In this document: positions 41,861-46,536 of the stretch, one piece after another
How the letters are laid out: each line of letters opens with the position of its first letter
Position numbering within the stretch: the stretch's first letter is position 1
Origin: Gammaproteobacteria bacterium MOLA455
Lineage (GTDB): Bacteria; Pseudomonadota; Gammaproteobacteria; Pseudomonadales; Porticoccaceae
Assembly (NCBI GenBank): GCA_000511875.1
Contig: AZIN01000004.1
Coordinates: forward strand, 448,915 to 509,245
DNA: 60,331 nucleotides
Direction of reading: 5' to 3'
Notes under the pieces: model-generated
The model's database searches: none
Seen by the model: only the letters and a program-made list of their open reading frames with translations
What the model was told of the DNA's origin: nothing
Program-made: the position numbers and the translations under genes

Positions 41861-42108
41861 AGCCAACATTCCTTTGTTATCAATTGCTGCGGATTCAACA
41901 GCTTAATTGTAGGCCAAAGCAGAGCCAACCACCGTGCATAGGTTTAACTCCGCCCATTTTAATTGAGGGCGTTACGCGGTAGTCCCCCCCACAAATTAAC
42001 TGAGGTTTTAAGTAGACTATTCTCGTAACCGATACGCACAAGACGGACTTTCCCCTTCGGCACGGGATCGATGACGTGACCTGTTCAGTGTTGAAGGATA
42101 TTTCTAGC

Positions 42109-43314
42109 TTAAACCAATTGAGACAAAAACGTCTTTGCTGGCACAATCGTCGGTTTGTCCAACATGAAGATATCTTGGTCTACGTAGTCGCCATCCATTG
42201 CAACTTGAAATACATGTTTTAATGAAAGTTGTTTTTGAAAGACCGCGAGAGTGGGTGAAAGCTTTTCTTTGATCGATGACTTTACTTCTACCATAAACCA
42301 AGGTTTTTGGTTTTTACTCACAAGAAAGTCAACTTCACGTTTATCTTTATCCCGTAGGAAGTGGAGTTCGTATTCGCCCAGACCTTGGTCGGTCCAGTAA
42401 TGTACGGCCTTAAGCAAATGTGAAGCGATAAAGTTTTCATTGCGTGCGCCTTTATCGCTGCATTGTGACCAGTCCCATAGATAGTATTTGGGCTCTTTGA
42501 GCAATGAACGGGTGATGTTTTTAGTCCATGGTCTAATAGAAAAGCAGTAGTAAAGTGACTCCAGCGTAACTATCCAGCGGCGGATGGTGTCGACAGATAC
42601 TCTAGTTTTTCTGGCTAGAGTAGAGTAGCTGGTGAGCTCTCCGGCCTGATGTTGCAGCAGGGTTGCCAGTAGTTCTAATTGCCCTAACTCTTGAATGTTG
42701 CTGAGTTCGCGAATATCTTCTCGTAATAGTTGCTGCTTTCGTAGGCGGGTCCAGCGGTTATAAAAGCGTTGTTCTTGTTTAAGGTAGGGTTCGGGGAATC
42801 CTCCCCAGTTAAGCAGGTTAAGAAATTTCGTATCGGCAATTTTTAAGGGTTTCTGTATGTCTGTATCCGAGGGGCCGCGGTTTAGTAACTCATTAACTGA
42901 AAGTGGGTGGAGGCGATAATAAAAATACCGGCCCATTAGGCTATCTCCGCCTTTTTTAAACACATCTAGCTTAGCGCTTCCTGTAACCAGTATGCGGCAC
43001 TGTGTATGGTAACGGTCATAAAAGCCTTTTATAAACGATTTCCACTGGCTGTATTTGTGTATTTCATCAAAGATAAGCAGCGGCAGCGTATCTCTCAGTC
43101 TATCAATATCAATATAGGCGGCAATAGTTTGTCCGCCTTGGAGTATTCGCTCACGATCTTCAATATCATCCCAGTTGAAGTAGTAGGTATTATTCTTAGA
43201 TTGAATAGACCGGGATGTCGTGGTTTTACCGACTTGCCGGGGGCCAGTCAGCAGGGCCATTTGTGTATGGTCGGCGAAATGATGCTGAATGAGCTGTTCA
43301 TAGGTTCTTTTCAT
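42109..43314 (-). CDS. AAA-family ATPase with DUF4143 C-terminal domain
   Basis: A 401-residue protein. The N-terminal AAA_14 ATPase has Walker A LLTGPRQVGKTTTS and Walker B LPLLIFDEIHKY, then VTGSAKLDVFKKGGDSLMGR. A winged-helix-like segment (STLARKTRVSVDTIRRWIV) leads into the C-terminal DUF4143 region with a nuclease-like core (KDKREVDFLVSKNQKPWFMVEVKSS, the D-x(n)-E-V-K pattern). It stands alone on the minus strand between housekeeping genes. The family is common, often horizontally moved and of unknown physiological role. Two tandem 30-bp palindromes cover its promoter. No ribosome-binding site is visible. Confidence 0.9.
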   Translation of the reverse strand: MKRTYEQLIQHHFADHTQMALLTGPRQVGKTTTSRSIQSKNNTYYFNWDDIEDRERILQGGQTIAAYIDIDRLRDTLPLLIFDEIHKYSQWKSFIKGFYDRYHTQCRILVTGSAKLDVFKKGGDSLMGRYFYYRLHPLSVNELLNRGPSDTDIQKPLKIADTKFLNLLNWGGFPEPYLKQEQRFYNRWTRLRKQQLLREDIRELSNIQELGQLELLATLLQHQAGELTSYSTLARKTRVSVDTIRRWIVTLESLYYCFSIRPWTKNITRSLLKEPKYYLWDWSQCSDKGARNENFIASHLLKAVHYWTDQGLGEYELHFLRDKDKREVDFLVSKNQKPWFMVEVKSSIKEKLSPTLAVFQKQLSLKHVFQVAMDGDYVDQDIFMLDKPTIVPAKTFLSQLV

Positions 43315-43317
43315 GCT

Positions 43318-43347
43318 GACTATATTACGATCTATCGTAATATAGTC
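43318..43347. promoter_or_regulatory. Palindromic operator copy 1 on the ATPase promoter
   Basis: A perfect inverted repeat with 14-bp arms around a 2-bp centre. Described as an operator it has 12-bp arms GACTATATTACG around a 6-bp centre. It ends 3 bp before the ATPase start codon and covers the predicted -10 and most of the -35 element. Confidence 0.85.
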
Positions 43348-43349
43348 AA
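43322..43349 (-). promoter_or_regulatory. Predicted sigma-70 promoter of the ATPase gene (leaderless)
   Basis: On the minus strand TTGACT (43344-43349) and TAATAT (43322-43327) are separated by 16 bp. Seven bases lie between the -10 hexamer and the ATG, so transcription would start at or next to the start codon. This agrees with the missing Shine-Dalgarno sequence. Confidence 0.65.
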
Positions 43350-43379
43350 GACCATTTTACGATAGTCCGTAAAATGGTC
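43350..43379. promoter_or_regulatory. Palindromic operator copy 2 upstream of the ATPase promoter
   Basis: A perfect inverted repeat of GACCATTTTACG around a 6-bp centre, with the same architecture as copy 1: 10 of 12 arm positions are identical. It starts 32 bp from copy 1, about three helical turns. The rest of the 336-nt gene-free stretch to 43650 contains one copy of a 41-bp dispersed repeat (43548-43588) and nothing else I can support. Confidence 0.85.
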
Positions 43380-43547
43380 GGGAAATTGAAATGTTAATGA
43401 TTGAGGCCGTATCGCTTATTTTATAACTAGTAGTCCAGTCGATAAGTCCTGCACCGAAGATATAGCTACAGCCACAACATCACCGCCACTAAGGGGTCCC
43501 AGTCCGTCAGCCTCAGCTCCTTCCGCGCTTCCCCCTCCTAAAACCAA

Positions 43548-43588
43548 GCAATATTGTGCCTCTCGCCACTTTCAGGTTTAATCCCTGC
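43548..43588 (+). repeat. 41-bp dispersed repeat, copy 1
   Basis: It shares 33 of 41 positions with 44317-44357, including an identical GGTTTAATCCCTGC end. Copy 1 lies 62 bp upstream of the LysE-type gene. Confidence 0.6.
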
Positions 43589-43650
43589 TTAATCATAAAT
43601 CCTCAGCTTAACTATTAAGCCCAGCCCAGCCCAAATAAGGCAGTAAAAAA

Positions 43651-44253
43651 TTGTCGACTTATCTCGCAGGATTCTCCCTAGGGCTTTCGCTGATTCTGGC
43701 CATCGGGTCGCAAAATGCCTTTGTGCTCAAACAGGGGCTTAAAAAACGCCATGTGTTTATCGTTTGTCTTGTCTGTGCTGTATCCGACGGCATTCTAATT
43801 TCTCTCGGGGTTGCTGGCTTTGGCACGGTGGTTAAACAGTTCCCCACCATAGAGATAGTCGCTAGATATGGCGGCGCAGCATTTTTAACCATTTACGCTT
43901 TGCTGAGTTTTAAGTCCGCCTTCACTGAAACTCACGCTCTCGAAGCCGAAGCGAAAACAGAAAGCTCGCTGTTTAAAACGATCGCCATCTGTCTGGCCTT
44001 TACTTGGTTAAACCCCCATGTCTATTTGGACACGGTGATTCTTTTGGGCTCGGTTTCAACTCAGTACTATCCTCAGCAGTTTCAGTTTGCTCTGGGTGCG
44101 GTGATCGCGTCCTTCGTTTTCTTCTTTAGTCTGGGTTATGGCGCGCGAGTTTTGGCGCCGGTATTTGAAAACCCTAAGGCTTGGAAGGTCTTGGAGTTTT
44201 TGGTCGGGATTATTATGCTTGCTCTTGCCTTATCACTGGTTGCAAATGTCTAG
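43651..44253 (+). CDS. LysE/ArgO-family amino-acid exporter
   Basis: A 200-residue inner-membrane protein with about six helices, starting at TTG 43651 (SD-like TAAGG 10 nt upstream). The family motif near the N-terminus is FSLGLSLILAIGSQNAFVLKQGL, and TWLNPHVYLDTVILLGSVS is the second conserved block. It probably exports basic amino acids (Arg or Lys). No LysG/ArgP-type regulator lies beside it. Confidence 0.9.
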   Translation: MSTYLAGFSLGLSLILAIGSQNAFVLKQGLKKRHVFIVCLVCAVSDGILISLGVAGFGTVVKQFPTIEIVARYGGAAFLTIYALLSFKSAFTETHALEAEAKTESSLFKTIAICLAFTWLNPHVYLDTVILLGSVSTQYYPQQFQFALGAVIASFVFFFSLGYGARVLAPVFENPKAWKVLEFLVGIIMLALALSLVANV

Positions 44254-44316
44254 TTTGTAATTGGCGAAGAGCCGCAATTCCTCAGTAATACCCTTAATCT
44301 CGGGCCATCCGGCTAT

Positions 44317-44357
44317 GCAATCTTGTGTGTCCTGCGGCTTTCGGGTTTAATCCCTGC
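44317..44357 (+). repeat. 41-bp dispersed repeat, copy 2
   Basis: Second copy of the 43548-43588 repeat. It ends exactly at the base before the proposed lolC ATG, so it forms the whole local 5' untranslated region of lolC. Confidence 0.6.
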
Positions 44358-45638
44358 ATGTTAACCAACCTCCCTCTATTTATTGGCCTGCGCTATATGC
44401 GCAGCAAGCGGCGCGATAGCTTTGTGTCGTTTATTTCGCTGTTTTCTCTGGCGGCTATGGCGCTGGGTGTGACGGCGCTGATTGTGGTGTTGTCGGTGAT
44501 GAATGGTTTTGATCGTGAGATCAAGACGCGTTTATTAAGAGTGGTGCCTCATGTGACTGTGACCAGCCCCCAAGGACTGGATAGGGCGCAGATCAATCAG
44601 TTTGAGGCCGAGTTAAAGGTGGGCGGTGAAAATGCGTCGGTTCAGGTACTCTCGGTGGTGCCTATGTTGCAGAGCTTTGTGATGGGCTCTAGCAAGGGCA
44701 ATCAAACGGGCTTGGTGCTGCAGGGCGTAGACCCGCAATCGCGCACTGGGGAGAAGCTGGCTGAGAATATGATCAGTGGCTATGTGGGTCAGTTGCAGGC
44801 TGGTGAGTTTGGTGTGGTGGTTGGCAGTCAGGTGGCGCGGAAGTTGGATCTGTTTGTGGGTGATCGGTTGCAGCTGACTTTGCCGTCGGTGACGGTGACG
44901 CCGGCCGGGGTGTTTCCGCGGATTAAGCGGGTGACTGTGACCGGTATTTTTCAGGTGGGTGCTCAGGTGGATGCTTCGGTGGTATTTATTCACTATCGCG
45001 ATGGCCAGAAGCTGTTGCGCTTGGGCGATCGTTTTCAGGGTGTGCAGTTGGAGCTGTCTGATGCCTTTGTGGCGGATAATTGGCTCAGCACCCAAGCTAA
45101 TAAGACTTTTCTGAGCGGCAGGTTAAAGGATGGCCTTAACTGGCGTACCTGGAGTGACAATATGGGCACGCTGTTTCAGGCGATGCGCATGGAAAAGGTG
45201 ATTGTGAGTCTGCTGCTGTCGGTGATTATTGCGGTGGCGGCGTTTAATATTGTTGCCAGTTTGGTGTTGATGGTGTCGGATAAGCGCAAGGATATTGCGG
45301 TGATCCGGACGCTGGGTGCAACGTCTGGAACGGTGATGAAGATTTTTATGATTCAGGGCTTGGCGGTGGGCAGTTTGGGTATTGTGGCTGGCACGCTGAT
45401 GGGCTGTCTGTTGGCGTATTTCGTCGGCGATATTGTGGCTGGGCTGGAAGCGCTCAGTGACAGTTATATTTTTGATCCCTCTATTTATTTAATCAGTGCA
45501 CTGCCCTCGGAAATTATTTTCAGCGATGTGGCCACAGTTGTCGGTGGTGCATTGGCTCTTAGTTTTCTCGCTACACTCTATCCCGCTTGGCGAGCGGGCA
45601 AAGTATTGCCTGCGGAGGCGTTGCGTTATGACCAGTGA
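44358..45638 (+). CDS. lolC: Lipoprotein-releasing ABC transporter permease LolC
   Basis: A 426-residue inner-membrane subunit of LolCDE, which extracts mature outer-membrane lipoproteins and hands them to LolA. It begins MLTNLPLFIGLRYMRSKRRD. The first membrane helix carries ALGVTALIVVLSVMNGFDRE, a large periplasmic domain follows, then three C-terminal helices (KRKDIAVIRTLGATSGTVM). The start at 44358 is placed on homology; an in-frame ATG-like start at 44325 is upstream. It overlaps lolD by 11 nt. Confidence 0.94.
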   Translation: MLTNLPLFIGLRYMRSKRRDSFVSFISLFSLAAMALGVTALIVVLSVMNGFDREIKTRLLRVVPHVTVTSPQGLDRAQINQFEAELKVGGENASVQVLSVVPMLQSFVMGSSKGNQTGLVLQGVDPQSRTGEKLAENMISGYVGQLQAGEFGVVVGSQVARKLDLFVGDRLQLTLPSVTVTPAGVFPRIKRVTVTGIFQVGAQVDASVVFIHYRDGQKLLRLGDRFQGVQLELSDAFVADNWLSTQANKTFLSGRLKDGLNWRTWSDNMGTLFQAMRMEKVIVSLLLSVIIAVAAFNIVASLVLMVSDKRKDIAVIRTLGATSGTVMKIFMIQGLAVGSLGIVAGTLMGCLLAYFVGDIVAGLEALSDSYIFDPSIYLISALPSEIIFSDVATVVGGALALSFLATLYPAWRAGKVLPAEALRYDQ

Positions 45639-46536
45639 TATTCCCCTAAACGAATCCCCGCTGGGGGATTCTGCCGCTGAGGGCTCTTCATCCGCTGAGG
45701 GCTCGCTTCCTAACAAAGTCCCCGAAGGGACTTCTGCCGCTGAGGGCTCGCTTCCTAACAAAGTCCCCGAAGGGACTTCTGCCGCTGAGGGCTCTTCATC
45801 CGCTGAGGGCTCTTCATCCGCTGAGGGCTCTTCATCCGCTGAGGGCTCTTATGTCTTAGAGGCCAAGGAGGTAGGTCGCGATTACCAGCAGGGCGATAGC
45901 CTCCTGCCGGTGCTGCGGGATACCAATTTGGCAATTAAAGCGGGCGAGAAGCTGGCAGTGGTGGGGGTCTCTGGCTCCGGTAAGACGACCTTGTTGAATT
46001 TGCTTGGCGGTTTGGATGATCCTAGCGCCGGCTCTGTGACTGTCTGCGGTGCTGATTGGCAGGGGCTGGGTGTTTCGGCTCGGGCTAAGTGGCGCAATCA
46101 GCATGTGGGCTTTGTCTATCAGTTTCATCATCTGTTGGGTGAGTTCAGCGCTGTGGAAAATGTTGCGCTGCCTTGTTTGATTGGCGGGGCGTCGGTTGCT
46201 GAGGCGCAACAGCGTGCTGAGGCGTTGCTTGGCAAAGTGGGTCTCGGTGATCGTCTGCAACATAAGCCGTCGGAACTGTCTGGCGGTGAGCGTCAGCGCG
46301 TGGCGATTGCCCGAGCGTTGGTGACCTCGCCTTCAGTGGTATTGATGGACGAACCAACAGGCAATTTGGATCCTGGCACTGCTGGGGTGATTCTGGATCT
46401 ATTGTTAACCCTCAACCAAACCTTAAATATCTCTTTTGTGGTGGTCACCCATGACCCGGCTATTGCGGCACGCATGGATCGTCAGGTGAATCTGATCGAT
46501 GGCCAGCTGGTGGAATTGGAGGCCGCGGTTGTATAA
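45628..46536 (+). CDS. lolD: Lipoprotein-releasing ABC transporter ATPase LolD with repeat-expanded N-terminus
   Basis: A 302-residue ABC ATPase powering LolCE. The core is normal: Walker A GVSGSGKTTLL, signature LSGGERQRVAIARAL, Walker B VVLMDEPTGNLD, His loop VVTHDP. The core begins at YVLEAKEVGRDYQQGD. Before it lie about 70 residues of Ser/Glu/Gly-rich repeat (AAEGSLPNKVPEGTS, SSAEG) absent from ordinary LolD. The ATG at 45628 has GGAGG 9 nt upstream and no usable in-frame start exists between the repeats and the core, so the repeats should be translated. Overlaps lolC and lolE. Confidence 0.95.
   Translation: MTSDIPLNESPLGDSAAEGSSSAEGSLPNKVPEGTSAAEGSLPNKVPEGTSAAEGSSSAEGSSSAEGSSSAEGSYVLEAKEVGRDYQQGDSLLPVLRDTNLAIKAGEKLAVVGVSGSGKTTLLNLLGGLDDPSAGSVTVCGADWQGLGVSARAKWRNQHVGFVYQFHHLLGEFSAVENVALPCLIGGASVAEAQQRAEALLGKVGLGDRLQHKPSELSGGERQRVAIARALVTSPSVVLMDEPTGNLDPGTAGVILDLLLTLNQTLNISFVVVTHDPAIAARMDRQVNLIDGQLVELEAAVV
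45652..45850 (+). repeat. In-frame hairpin-containing tandem repeats inside lolD
   Basis: Two 45-bp copies (45694-45738 and 45739-45783) each contain a hairpin, AAGTCCC/GGGACTT (45716-45733, 45761-45778). A related hairpin GAATCCCC/GGGGATTC (45652-45671) precedes them. All three are followed by CTGCCGCTGAGGGCTC. An 18-bp unit GCTGAGGGCTCTTCATCC occurs at 45676, 45784, 45802 and 45820, with a partial copy at 45838. All unit lengths are multiples of three. Confidence 0.93.

What the first reader, a model, noticed from the sequence alone, without database searches (positions are those of the whole stretch)
43315..43379. Two tandem 30-bp palindromic operators on a leaderless promoter of an AAA/DUF4143 ATPase
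Directly seen: copies at 43318-43347 and 43350-43379, each a perfect inverted repeat with arm GACYATWTTACG around a 6-bp centre, spaced 32 bp apart (about three helical turns). The minus-strand promoter TTGACT-16-TAATAT lies on copy 1, and the -10 is 7 bases from the ATG, so the mRNA is probably leaderless. Inference: a dimeric regulator binds both sites cooperatively on one DNA face and shuts off the ATPase. The ATPase itself has a winged-helix-like segment and could be its own repressor. Such tight control of an orphan DUF4143 ATPase suggests a toxin-like, defence-like or regulatory role that is not described for this family.
Basis: partly seen in the sequence, partly recalled or inferred. 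Interest (0 to 1): 0.72.

Follow-up and report, generated by a model that had tools for sequence, protein, structure and literature searches.

The report
Self-reading four-site switch on ATPase gene
A single-gene unit found in many unrelated bacteria, a likely anti-phage ATPase with a nuclease-like domain, carries four copies of a short DNA word at an exact 16-base rhythm on its predicted start signal; across relatives the word changes together with the protein's predicted DNA-reading helix, so the protein is likely to bind it and would switch its own gene down.

Summary
The palindromes are real, but read better as four 14-bp half-sites in alternating orientation at an exact 16-bp pitch (43318, 43334, 43350, 43366), on the predicted leaderless promoter of a 401-aa AAA_14/winged-helix/DUF4143 protein (PADLOC PDC-S01, candidate defence). 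Of 109 loci (window included) 67 score >=50 for this array; each other gap tried gives 0 or 1. Downstream controls: 0 of 78. Other DUF4143 ATPases, 22-30% identical: 0 of 28. The half-site core co-varies with the protein's own recognition helix, the best of all protein windows, and residue D242 with ACG survives tree simulation (trait chosen post hoc); a separate set of 20 loci alone did not reproduce the helix signal. The AlphaFold model (pLDDT 91.9) puts these residues on a winged-helix recognition helix. Array plus gene look like one ~1.3-kb mobile unit: window and a SAR92 relative share 42105-43380 only. Binding, repression and leaderlessness are inferred. In a same-genus genome the same gap holds SoFic. 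No paper seen in my searches describes the array.

The parts
43318..43331 (+). half-site D (nearest the ATG), 14 bp, GACTATATTACGAT
   Evidence: overlaps the predicted -10
43334..43347 (-). half-site C, GACTATATTACGAT
43350..43363 (+). half-site B, GACCATTTTACGAT
43366..43379 (-). half-site A (outermost), GACCATTTTACGGA
   Evidence: DNA homology with the SAR92 H231 copy ends at 43380
43344..43349 (-). predicted -35 TTGACT at the junction of the two palindromes
   Evidence: TTGAC in the same register in 22 of 34 class-A loci
43322..43327 (-). predicted -10 TAATAT, 7 bases from the ATG (predicted leaderless)
   Evidence: a -10-like hexamer (>=4 of 6, best of spacers 15-19) in 33 of 34 class-A loci; for the window that script picked TATAGT at spacer 19 instead
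42109..43314 (-). AAA_14 / winged-helix / DUF4143 ATPase, 401 aa, PADLOC PDC-S01
42880..43314 (-). AAA+ ATPase domain, residues 1-145 (GPRQVGKTT 24-32, DE 83-84)
42478..42687 (-). predicted winged helix, residues 210-279
   Evidence: AlphaFold model; HTH_36 24.8 bits against cut-off 25
42556..42594 (-). recognition helix, residues 241-253, co-varies with the half-site core
42490..42528 (-). wing loop, residues 263-275, weaker co-variation with outer bases of the half-site
42280..42453 (-). PD-(D/E)XK-like part, residues 288-345 (E293, D329, E343, K345)
   Evidence: motif assignment recalled; ATPase fused to PD-(D/E)-X-K stated for PDC-S01 in PMC12988326

Best explanation
The array is most likely the self-operator of a mobile single-gene candidate defence ATPase: the protein is predicted to bind four half-sites at its own promoter through its own winged helix and would thereby hold down its own, probably leaderless, transcript. 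Shown here by sequence: four half-sites in alternating orientation at exactly 16 bp (about 1.5 helical turns, so every second one faces the same way), a position on or beside the promoter, presence through a wide clade, array and gene staying together in different neighbourhoods, and co-variation of half-site core with the recognition helix. Inferred: that the protein binds, probably as dimers joined into one assembly on all four sites; that occupancy blocks RNA polymerase in the layout of the window, where -35 and -10 both lie inside the array; and that a signal (ATP state, phage product or loss of protein) lifts the block. As copies carry different words, paralogues in one cell could be regulated without cross-talk.
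For: Array: of window plus 80 relatives 62 of 81 exceed the 99th percentile of 1,620 shuffles, downstream controls 0 of 78; with the same threshold pitch 15 and 17 give 0, pitch 14, 18, 19 give 3, 4, 2 of 81. Gaps varied separately over 109 loci: 67 score >=50 with all gaps 2, at most 1 at any other gap tried. Among newly fetched homologues of 36-44% identity 14 of 22 score >=50, with new cores. DUF4143 ATPases of 22-30% identity: 0 of 28, although they have the aligned HTH segment. Co-variation: partial Mantel peak at windows starting 237-241 for n=47 and n=70 (r 0.47 all positions, 0.49 core; best window outside 228-256 0.16 and 0.25; maximum of 500 label permutations 0.26 and 0.23); nearest neighbour by window 237/238 predicts the core best at identity caps 0.6 and 0.5 (n=85). 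D242 goes with ACG at half-site positions 10-12 in 30 of 38 loci, 0 of 46 without D242; 0 of 4,000 simulations on a tree built without the winged helix reach that; in a scan of columns for CG at 11-12 D242, R245 and R246 come first. Model: recognition helix 241-253. No conserved neighbour that could be the regulator: the largest shared ORF family is in 7 of 81 neighbourhoods and is another ATPase. No other site in the own genome at <=3 mismatches. Promoter: class A TTGAC in register 22 of 34, -10-like 33 of 34, -10 to start codon 6-7 nt in 17 of the 22. Three paralogues in genome G063 carry three different cores.
Against: No binding or expression data. In the separate set of 20 loci the helix/core signal was not found (best windows 319 and 83, within the permutation range). 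At identity cap 0.45 the best window for the core was 96, not the helix. The label permutation is lenient: for the core even the best window outside the helix (0.246) passes its maximum (0.234). The residue/base traits were chosen after seeing the table. The wing/outer-base signal was seen in the combined 70 and the separate 20 but not in the 50 genome-contig loci, nor at caps 0.6 and 0.5. 42 of 109 loci score below 50: misplaced starts, decayed arrays or none. In 33 of 75 loci the array ends 15-50 bp before the start codon, and TTGAC follows it directly in only 6; there it could activate or do neither. The -10 count has no shuffled control. The HTH segment also exists in members without array, so it must have another or older use.
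Confidence: 0.74

Rival explanations
1. The ATPase reads the array, but mainly for another purpose than transcription: the array is a docking, self-recognition or mobility site (as origin boxes are for Orc/Cdc6-type AAA+ winged-helix proteins), and the promoter overlap is secondary.
For: Array plus ORF is the block of homology: window/L011 42105-43380; of 7 pairs of copies with >=91% DNA identity, 5 (L036/L041, L023/L028, L036/L042, L037/L039, L041/L042) lose homology within 41 bp of the array's outer edge and within 15 bp of the gene end. Folds matched include Orc1/Cdc6 and clamp loaders, besides 2QEN and 2FNA. Nuclease-like residues conserved.
Against: 2 of those 7 pairs (L066/L073, L050/L059), and L027/L032 at 85%, share flanking DNA. 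In 34 of 75 loci the array ends within 6 bp of the start codon, with TTGAC in register in 22; it is at one end only, 0 of 78 downstream; the last codons vary at third positions, so no DNA-level right end is seen.
Confidence: 0.13
2. The ATPase binds its array and activates its own gene.
For: In 33 of 75 loci the array ends 15-50 bp upstream of the start codon, in 6 of them with TTGAC directly after it.
Against: In the window and the other 33 class-A loci the array ends within 6 bp of the start codon and so overlaps the likely core promoter, which normally excludes polymerase (general knowledge).
Confidence: 0.09
3. A separate, host-encoded dimeric regulator binds the palindromes.
For: Palindromic operators are often bound by small dimeric repressors (general knowledge); RptR of a defence island is one (PMC12255303, abstract and outline seen).
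Against: The array accompanies the gene in records labelled as many phyla and its core co-varies with the ATPase's own helix; no neighbour is conserved; no further site in the own genome at <=3 mismatches.
Confidence: 0.02
4. The inverted repeats act as RNA hairpins (terminator or attenuator).
For: The arms are perfectly complementary and could pair (no RNA folding was run).
Against: With the predicted start near the ATG most of the array is not transcribed; the alternation continues across the palindrome junction with the same spacing, which hairpins do not need; base identity follows the protein helix.
Confidence: 0.02

Closest known systems
PDC-S01 (PADLOC phage-defence candidate; AAA_14 + DUF4143)
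   Same: The ATPase hits PDC-S01 models over residues 2-362 (E 2.7e-56); single-gene, widespread, transferred between domains (PMC12988326, passages).
   Different: No operator or autoregulation appears in the passages I read; the array belongs to one clade (0 of 28 in other DUF4143 members).
Self-repressing effectors with their own HTH (lambda cI-type repressors; methyltransferases such as M.SsoII; recalled, no call)
   Same: One protein that acts and reads an operator on its own promoter; leaderless mRNA is known for cI (recalled).
   Different: Here an AAA+ ATPase fused to a nuclease-like domain, four alternating half-sites at a fixed 16-bp pitch, and many different half-site words across the clade.
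RptR repressor of restriction-modification/defence islands
   Same: Repressor at a repeated operator of a defence locus, operator and regulator conserved together (PMC12255303 abstract).
Archaeal AAA+ ATPases PABY2304 (2QEN) and SSO1545 (2FNA); Orc1/Cdc6
   Different: Alignment to these two spans model residues 1-287 only; 12-14% identity.

Membership tests
DUF4143 / AAA_14 (Pfam PF13635, PF13173) | score above Pfam cut-offs | tested here: met
   102.1 against 28.1 and 98.9 against 27 bits
PDC-S01 | near full-length match to PADLOC models | tested here: met
   residues 2-362 on profile 13-385 of 422, E 2.7e-56
PDC-S01 | protects against phage | not testable with these tools
PD-(D/E)XK nuclease superfamily | conserved acidic residues and ExK | tested here: met
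   E293, E343, K345 invariant in 66 sequences, D329 in >=90%; motif pattern recalled, activity not tested
winged-helix DNA-binding domain | three helices plus beta wing | tested here: met
   in the predicted model only: H210-222, H230-237, H241-253, E257-262, E276-279
winged-helix DNA-binding domain | HTH_36 above Pfam cut-off | tested here: inconclusive
   24.8 against 25 bits
two-gene toxin-antitoxin module | conserved partner gene next door | tested here: not met
   no ORF family shared by more than 7 of 81 neighbourhoods (ORFs >=70 aa, up to 2.5 kb each side where the contig allows)
transposon-like element with terminal repeats | related repeats at both ends | tested here: not met
   array downstream in 0 of 78 loci
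leaderless autorepressed gene | transcript starts at the start codon and falls when protein is supplied | not testable with these tools
   only promoter spacing is seen
SSO1545/2QEN-type STAND-like ATPases | same fold over AAA+ and winged helix | tested here: inconclusive

The most novel reading that the evidence does not exclude
A one-gene guard whose antidote is DNA: the ATPase-nuclease parks as an inactive assembly on the four-site array beside its own gene, and when the locus is lost, its promoter is hijacked or an invader alters the cell, freed protein attacks DNA. Array and gene together form a 1.3-kb self-contained mobile unit that has spread across phyla while each lineage evolves its own password.
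Probability: 0.1. Interest if true: 0.92.

Novelty: new variant of a known kind. Interest (0 to 1): 0.68.

Why it matters
PDC-S01 is called the fourth most common defence across prokaryotes, without a known mechanism in the passages I read (PMC12988326). A built-in self-operator would give a handle on when such genes are on, supply a DNA ligand for biochemistry and structure, and offer a natural series of matched winged-helix/half-site pairs from which a recognition code could be tested directly.

Tried and rejected
Simple palindrome-pair scoring was too blunt (35 of 80 above the 99th percentile of shuffles, 2 of 78 downstream) and was replaced by the four-half-site test. Phage origin: no relative in viral contigs with this single-protein query and only 4 weak phage records. 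Plasmids: 328 records, all under 60% identity, the two best 55% and 38%, the other listed ones 25-29%; of the two best, the Rhabdochlamydia copy has an array (score 60), the Bandiella copy, annotated as two ORFs, has no full one (score 41). A dispersed genomic repeat: excluded at <=3 mismatches. Of six class genomes with a pattern hit, two (G077, G116; single 3-mismatch sites) have no ATPase there and are taken as chance; the other four, own genome included, have the site directly before an ATPase homologue. A DNA-level right end after the stop codon: none seen. L203 scored 60 at pitch 14 from a 7-bp tandem repeat. Among nine very distant DUF4143 starts one (L149) had a 16-bp-pitch array of unrelated word. 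One literature query used bad terms and returned noise. The structure searches barely test the nuclease-like part; their silence on it shows nothing.

Rows dropped: four loci whose match begins inside the gene (L094, L099, L100, L108); before searches also the duplicates L092 and L103, no others removed there. One search used the 47 of 81 loci with score >=50; the loci with score >=48, register starting G or T, protein over 300 aa (75), less near-identical ones (70). One search took score >=44, left out six for register (L066, L069, L073, L111, L113, L123) and, by hand, L129-L133 (same loci as) and L134, L140, L142 (no clear register), then near-identical proteins (n=85); one search also left out L101, which is partial (84); 2 of 30 loci had no recognisable Walker motif.

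Full report
What is there. In the own genome the pattern (<=3 mismatches) occurs only here, beside the only DUF4143 match of that genome. Read at 14 bp per half-site, the 62 bp hold four half-sites, in gene direction GACCATTTTACGGA, GACCATTTTACGAT, GACTATATTACGAT, GACTATATTACGAT, in alternating orientation 16 bp apart; the step across the two palindromes equals the step inside them. On the minus strand TTGACT (at the junction), 16 bp, TAATAT, 7 bases, ATG follow.

The protein. 401 aa: AAA_14, DUF4143 and a borderline HTH_36 match, PADLOC PDC-S01. An AlphaFold model from 66 sequences (pLDDT 91.9, pTM 0.91) shows an AAA+ domain, a winged helix with recognition helix 241-253 and wing loop 263-275, and a C-terminal part with conserved E293, D329, E343, K345, which I read as a PD-(D/E)XK pattern (recalled; that fold is stated for PDC-S01 in PMC12988326). 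The highest Z among solved folds are the archaeal ATPases 2QEN and 2FNA; clamp loaders, Orc/Cdc6 and STAND proteins follow.

The array is a conserved trait of a clade. The search for related loci kept the best 80 of 356 relatives, 45-88% identical, from records labelled Gammaproteobacteria, Mariprofundia, Chlamydiae, Deltaproteobacteria, Omnitrophota and others (most are metagenome bins and some may be mislabelled). 62 of 81 (window included) exceed the 99th percentile of shuffles, 0 of 78 downstream controls do. In 369 genomes of the class, 31 (own included) hold a homologue at E<=1e-60; of the fetched ones with 36-44% identity, 14 of 22 have an array of score >=50, with quite different words such as GACTATTCTATATT or GGCTATTTTGAACT. 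A phylum sample (12 of 398 genomes, own included) repeats this, partly with the same loci. Over 109 loci, each single other value tried for the junction gap or the inner gaps leaves at most 1 array of score >=50 against 67. DUF4143 ATPases sampled by family score, 22-30% identical, show 0 of 28 arrays, although the HTH segment aligns; of nine other distant starts one had an array of unrelated word.

Who reads it. No neighbour is conserved: the largest ORF family is in 7 of 81 neighbourhoods. Operator distance, after removal of overall protein distance, correlates best with the windows starting at 237-241 among all 10-residue windows (n=47; n=70, above all of 500 label permutations). Outer bases correlate with 263-275, the wing loop, in the combined set (0.374, permutation maximum 0.354) and in the separate 20 (0.60 against 0.55), not in the 50 genome-contig loci. 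Against the helix reading: the helix/core signal is absent in the separate 20; for the core, the best window outside the helix (0.246) also passes the permutation maximum (0.234), so that control is lenient; nearest-neighbour prediction favours the helix at identity caps 0.6 and 0.5 but window 96 at 0.45. By residue (84 tips, tree built without the winged helix, 4,000 simulations each): D242 with ACG at 10-12 in 30 of 38, without D242 0 of 46 (0 simulations reach it); D242 with CG at 11-12 25 of 38 against 1 of 46 (0); P242 with AAC or AAA at 10-12 in 5 of 5 against 1 of 79 (0); K246 with CA at 11-12 in 7 of 10 against 1 of 74 (4); R246 with CG 26 of 50 against 0 of 34 (7); a looser trait for K/Q/N/R/T242 was weaker (22). 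These traits were picked after looking at the table; a scan of the variable columns for CG at 11-12 puts D242, R245 and R246 first.

The promoter. Of 75 loci with score >=48, 34 have the array ending within 6 bp of the start codon; there TTGAC stands in the junction register in 22, a -10-like hexamer (best of several spacers, no shuffled control) in 33, and the distance to the start codon is 6-7 nt in 17 of the 22. In 33 the array ends 15-50 bp upstream; only 6 have TTGAC directly after it. Eight fit neither. Repression by occlusion is thus well motivated for the window's layout, less so for the other.

Mobility and company. The window and SAR92 H231 (L011; G765) share DNA over 42105-43380 only within the stretches compared. 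3 of 50 genus genomes, own included, have the gene. Of 13 loci found in 29 genus genomes with the neighbouring small ORF, 8 have sthA-small ORF and lolC adjacent without this insert, among them G765, whose copy lies elsewhere. G793 shares the lolC side of the site and has PDC-S05- and PDC-M34-like genes on the other side of its ATPase; G748 has a SoFic-like gene in the gap. Of 7 pairs of >=91% identical copies in other records, 5 lose homology within 41 bp of the array edge and within 15 bp of the gene end; L066/L073 and L050/L059 do not, nor does the 85% pair L027/L032. This is how defence-like cargo behaves, and it fits the PDC-S01 label, itself a prediction.

Literature. DUF4143 occurs in 1 paper of the library (one passage read: a Thermus gene in a table of genes changed in the presence of plasmid DNA), together with 'palindrom' in none; PDC-S01 in 3 (passages of two read); COG1373 in 7, seen as listing only; two further queries gave nothing on the array. 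Subscription papers and preprints were not searchable.

Verdict. The most likely mechanism is self-reading autoregulation of a mobile candidate defence ATPase; binding and repression remain to be shown.

Noticed in passing
window 41869-44360 (small ORF to lolC gap); L171 621-1668; L167 5838-7934: The gap looks like a small hot spot: without insert in 8 genus loci, PDC-S01 ATPase plus LysE-type gene in the window, SoFic-like gene in G748, PDC-S01 next to PDC-S05/PDC-M34-like genes in G793.
   Followed up: partly
window 43548-43588 and 44317-44357: A 41-bp direct repeat (80%) flanks the LysE-type gene and may mark how it entered.
   Followed up: no
window 45489-45850; L175 1285-1478: Low-complexity repeat (EGSSSAEGSS-like) in front of the LolD-like ATPase domain; related DNA repeats match several times between sthA and the small ORF in genome G767.
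   Followed up: no
L149 (G063 C143): A 16-bp-pitch alternating array with an unrelated word (TTACACG...) near distant DUF4143 genes, score 63.
   Followed up: no
L183 1501-2523: Plasmid copy of Candidatus Bandiella (55%) annotated as two ORFs, flanked by two PIN/VapC-AbrB pairs and an integrase, without a full array.
   Followed up: no
L092, L097, L101 (genome G063): Three paralogues in one genome with three different half-site words, as if kept apart to avoid cross-talk.
   Followed up: partly
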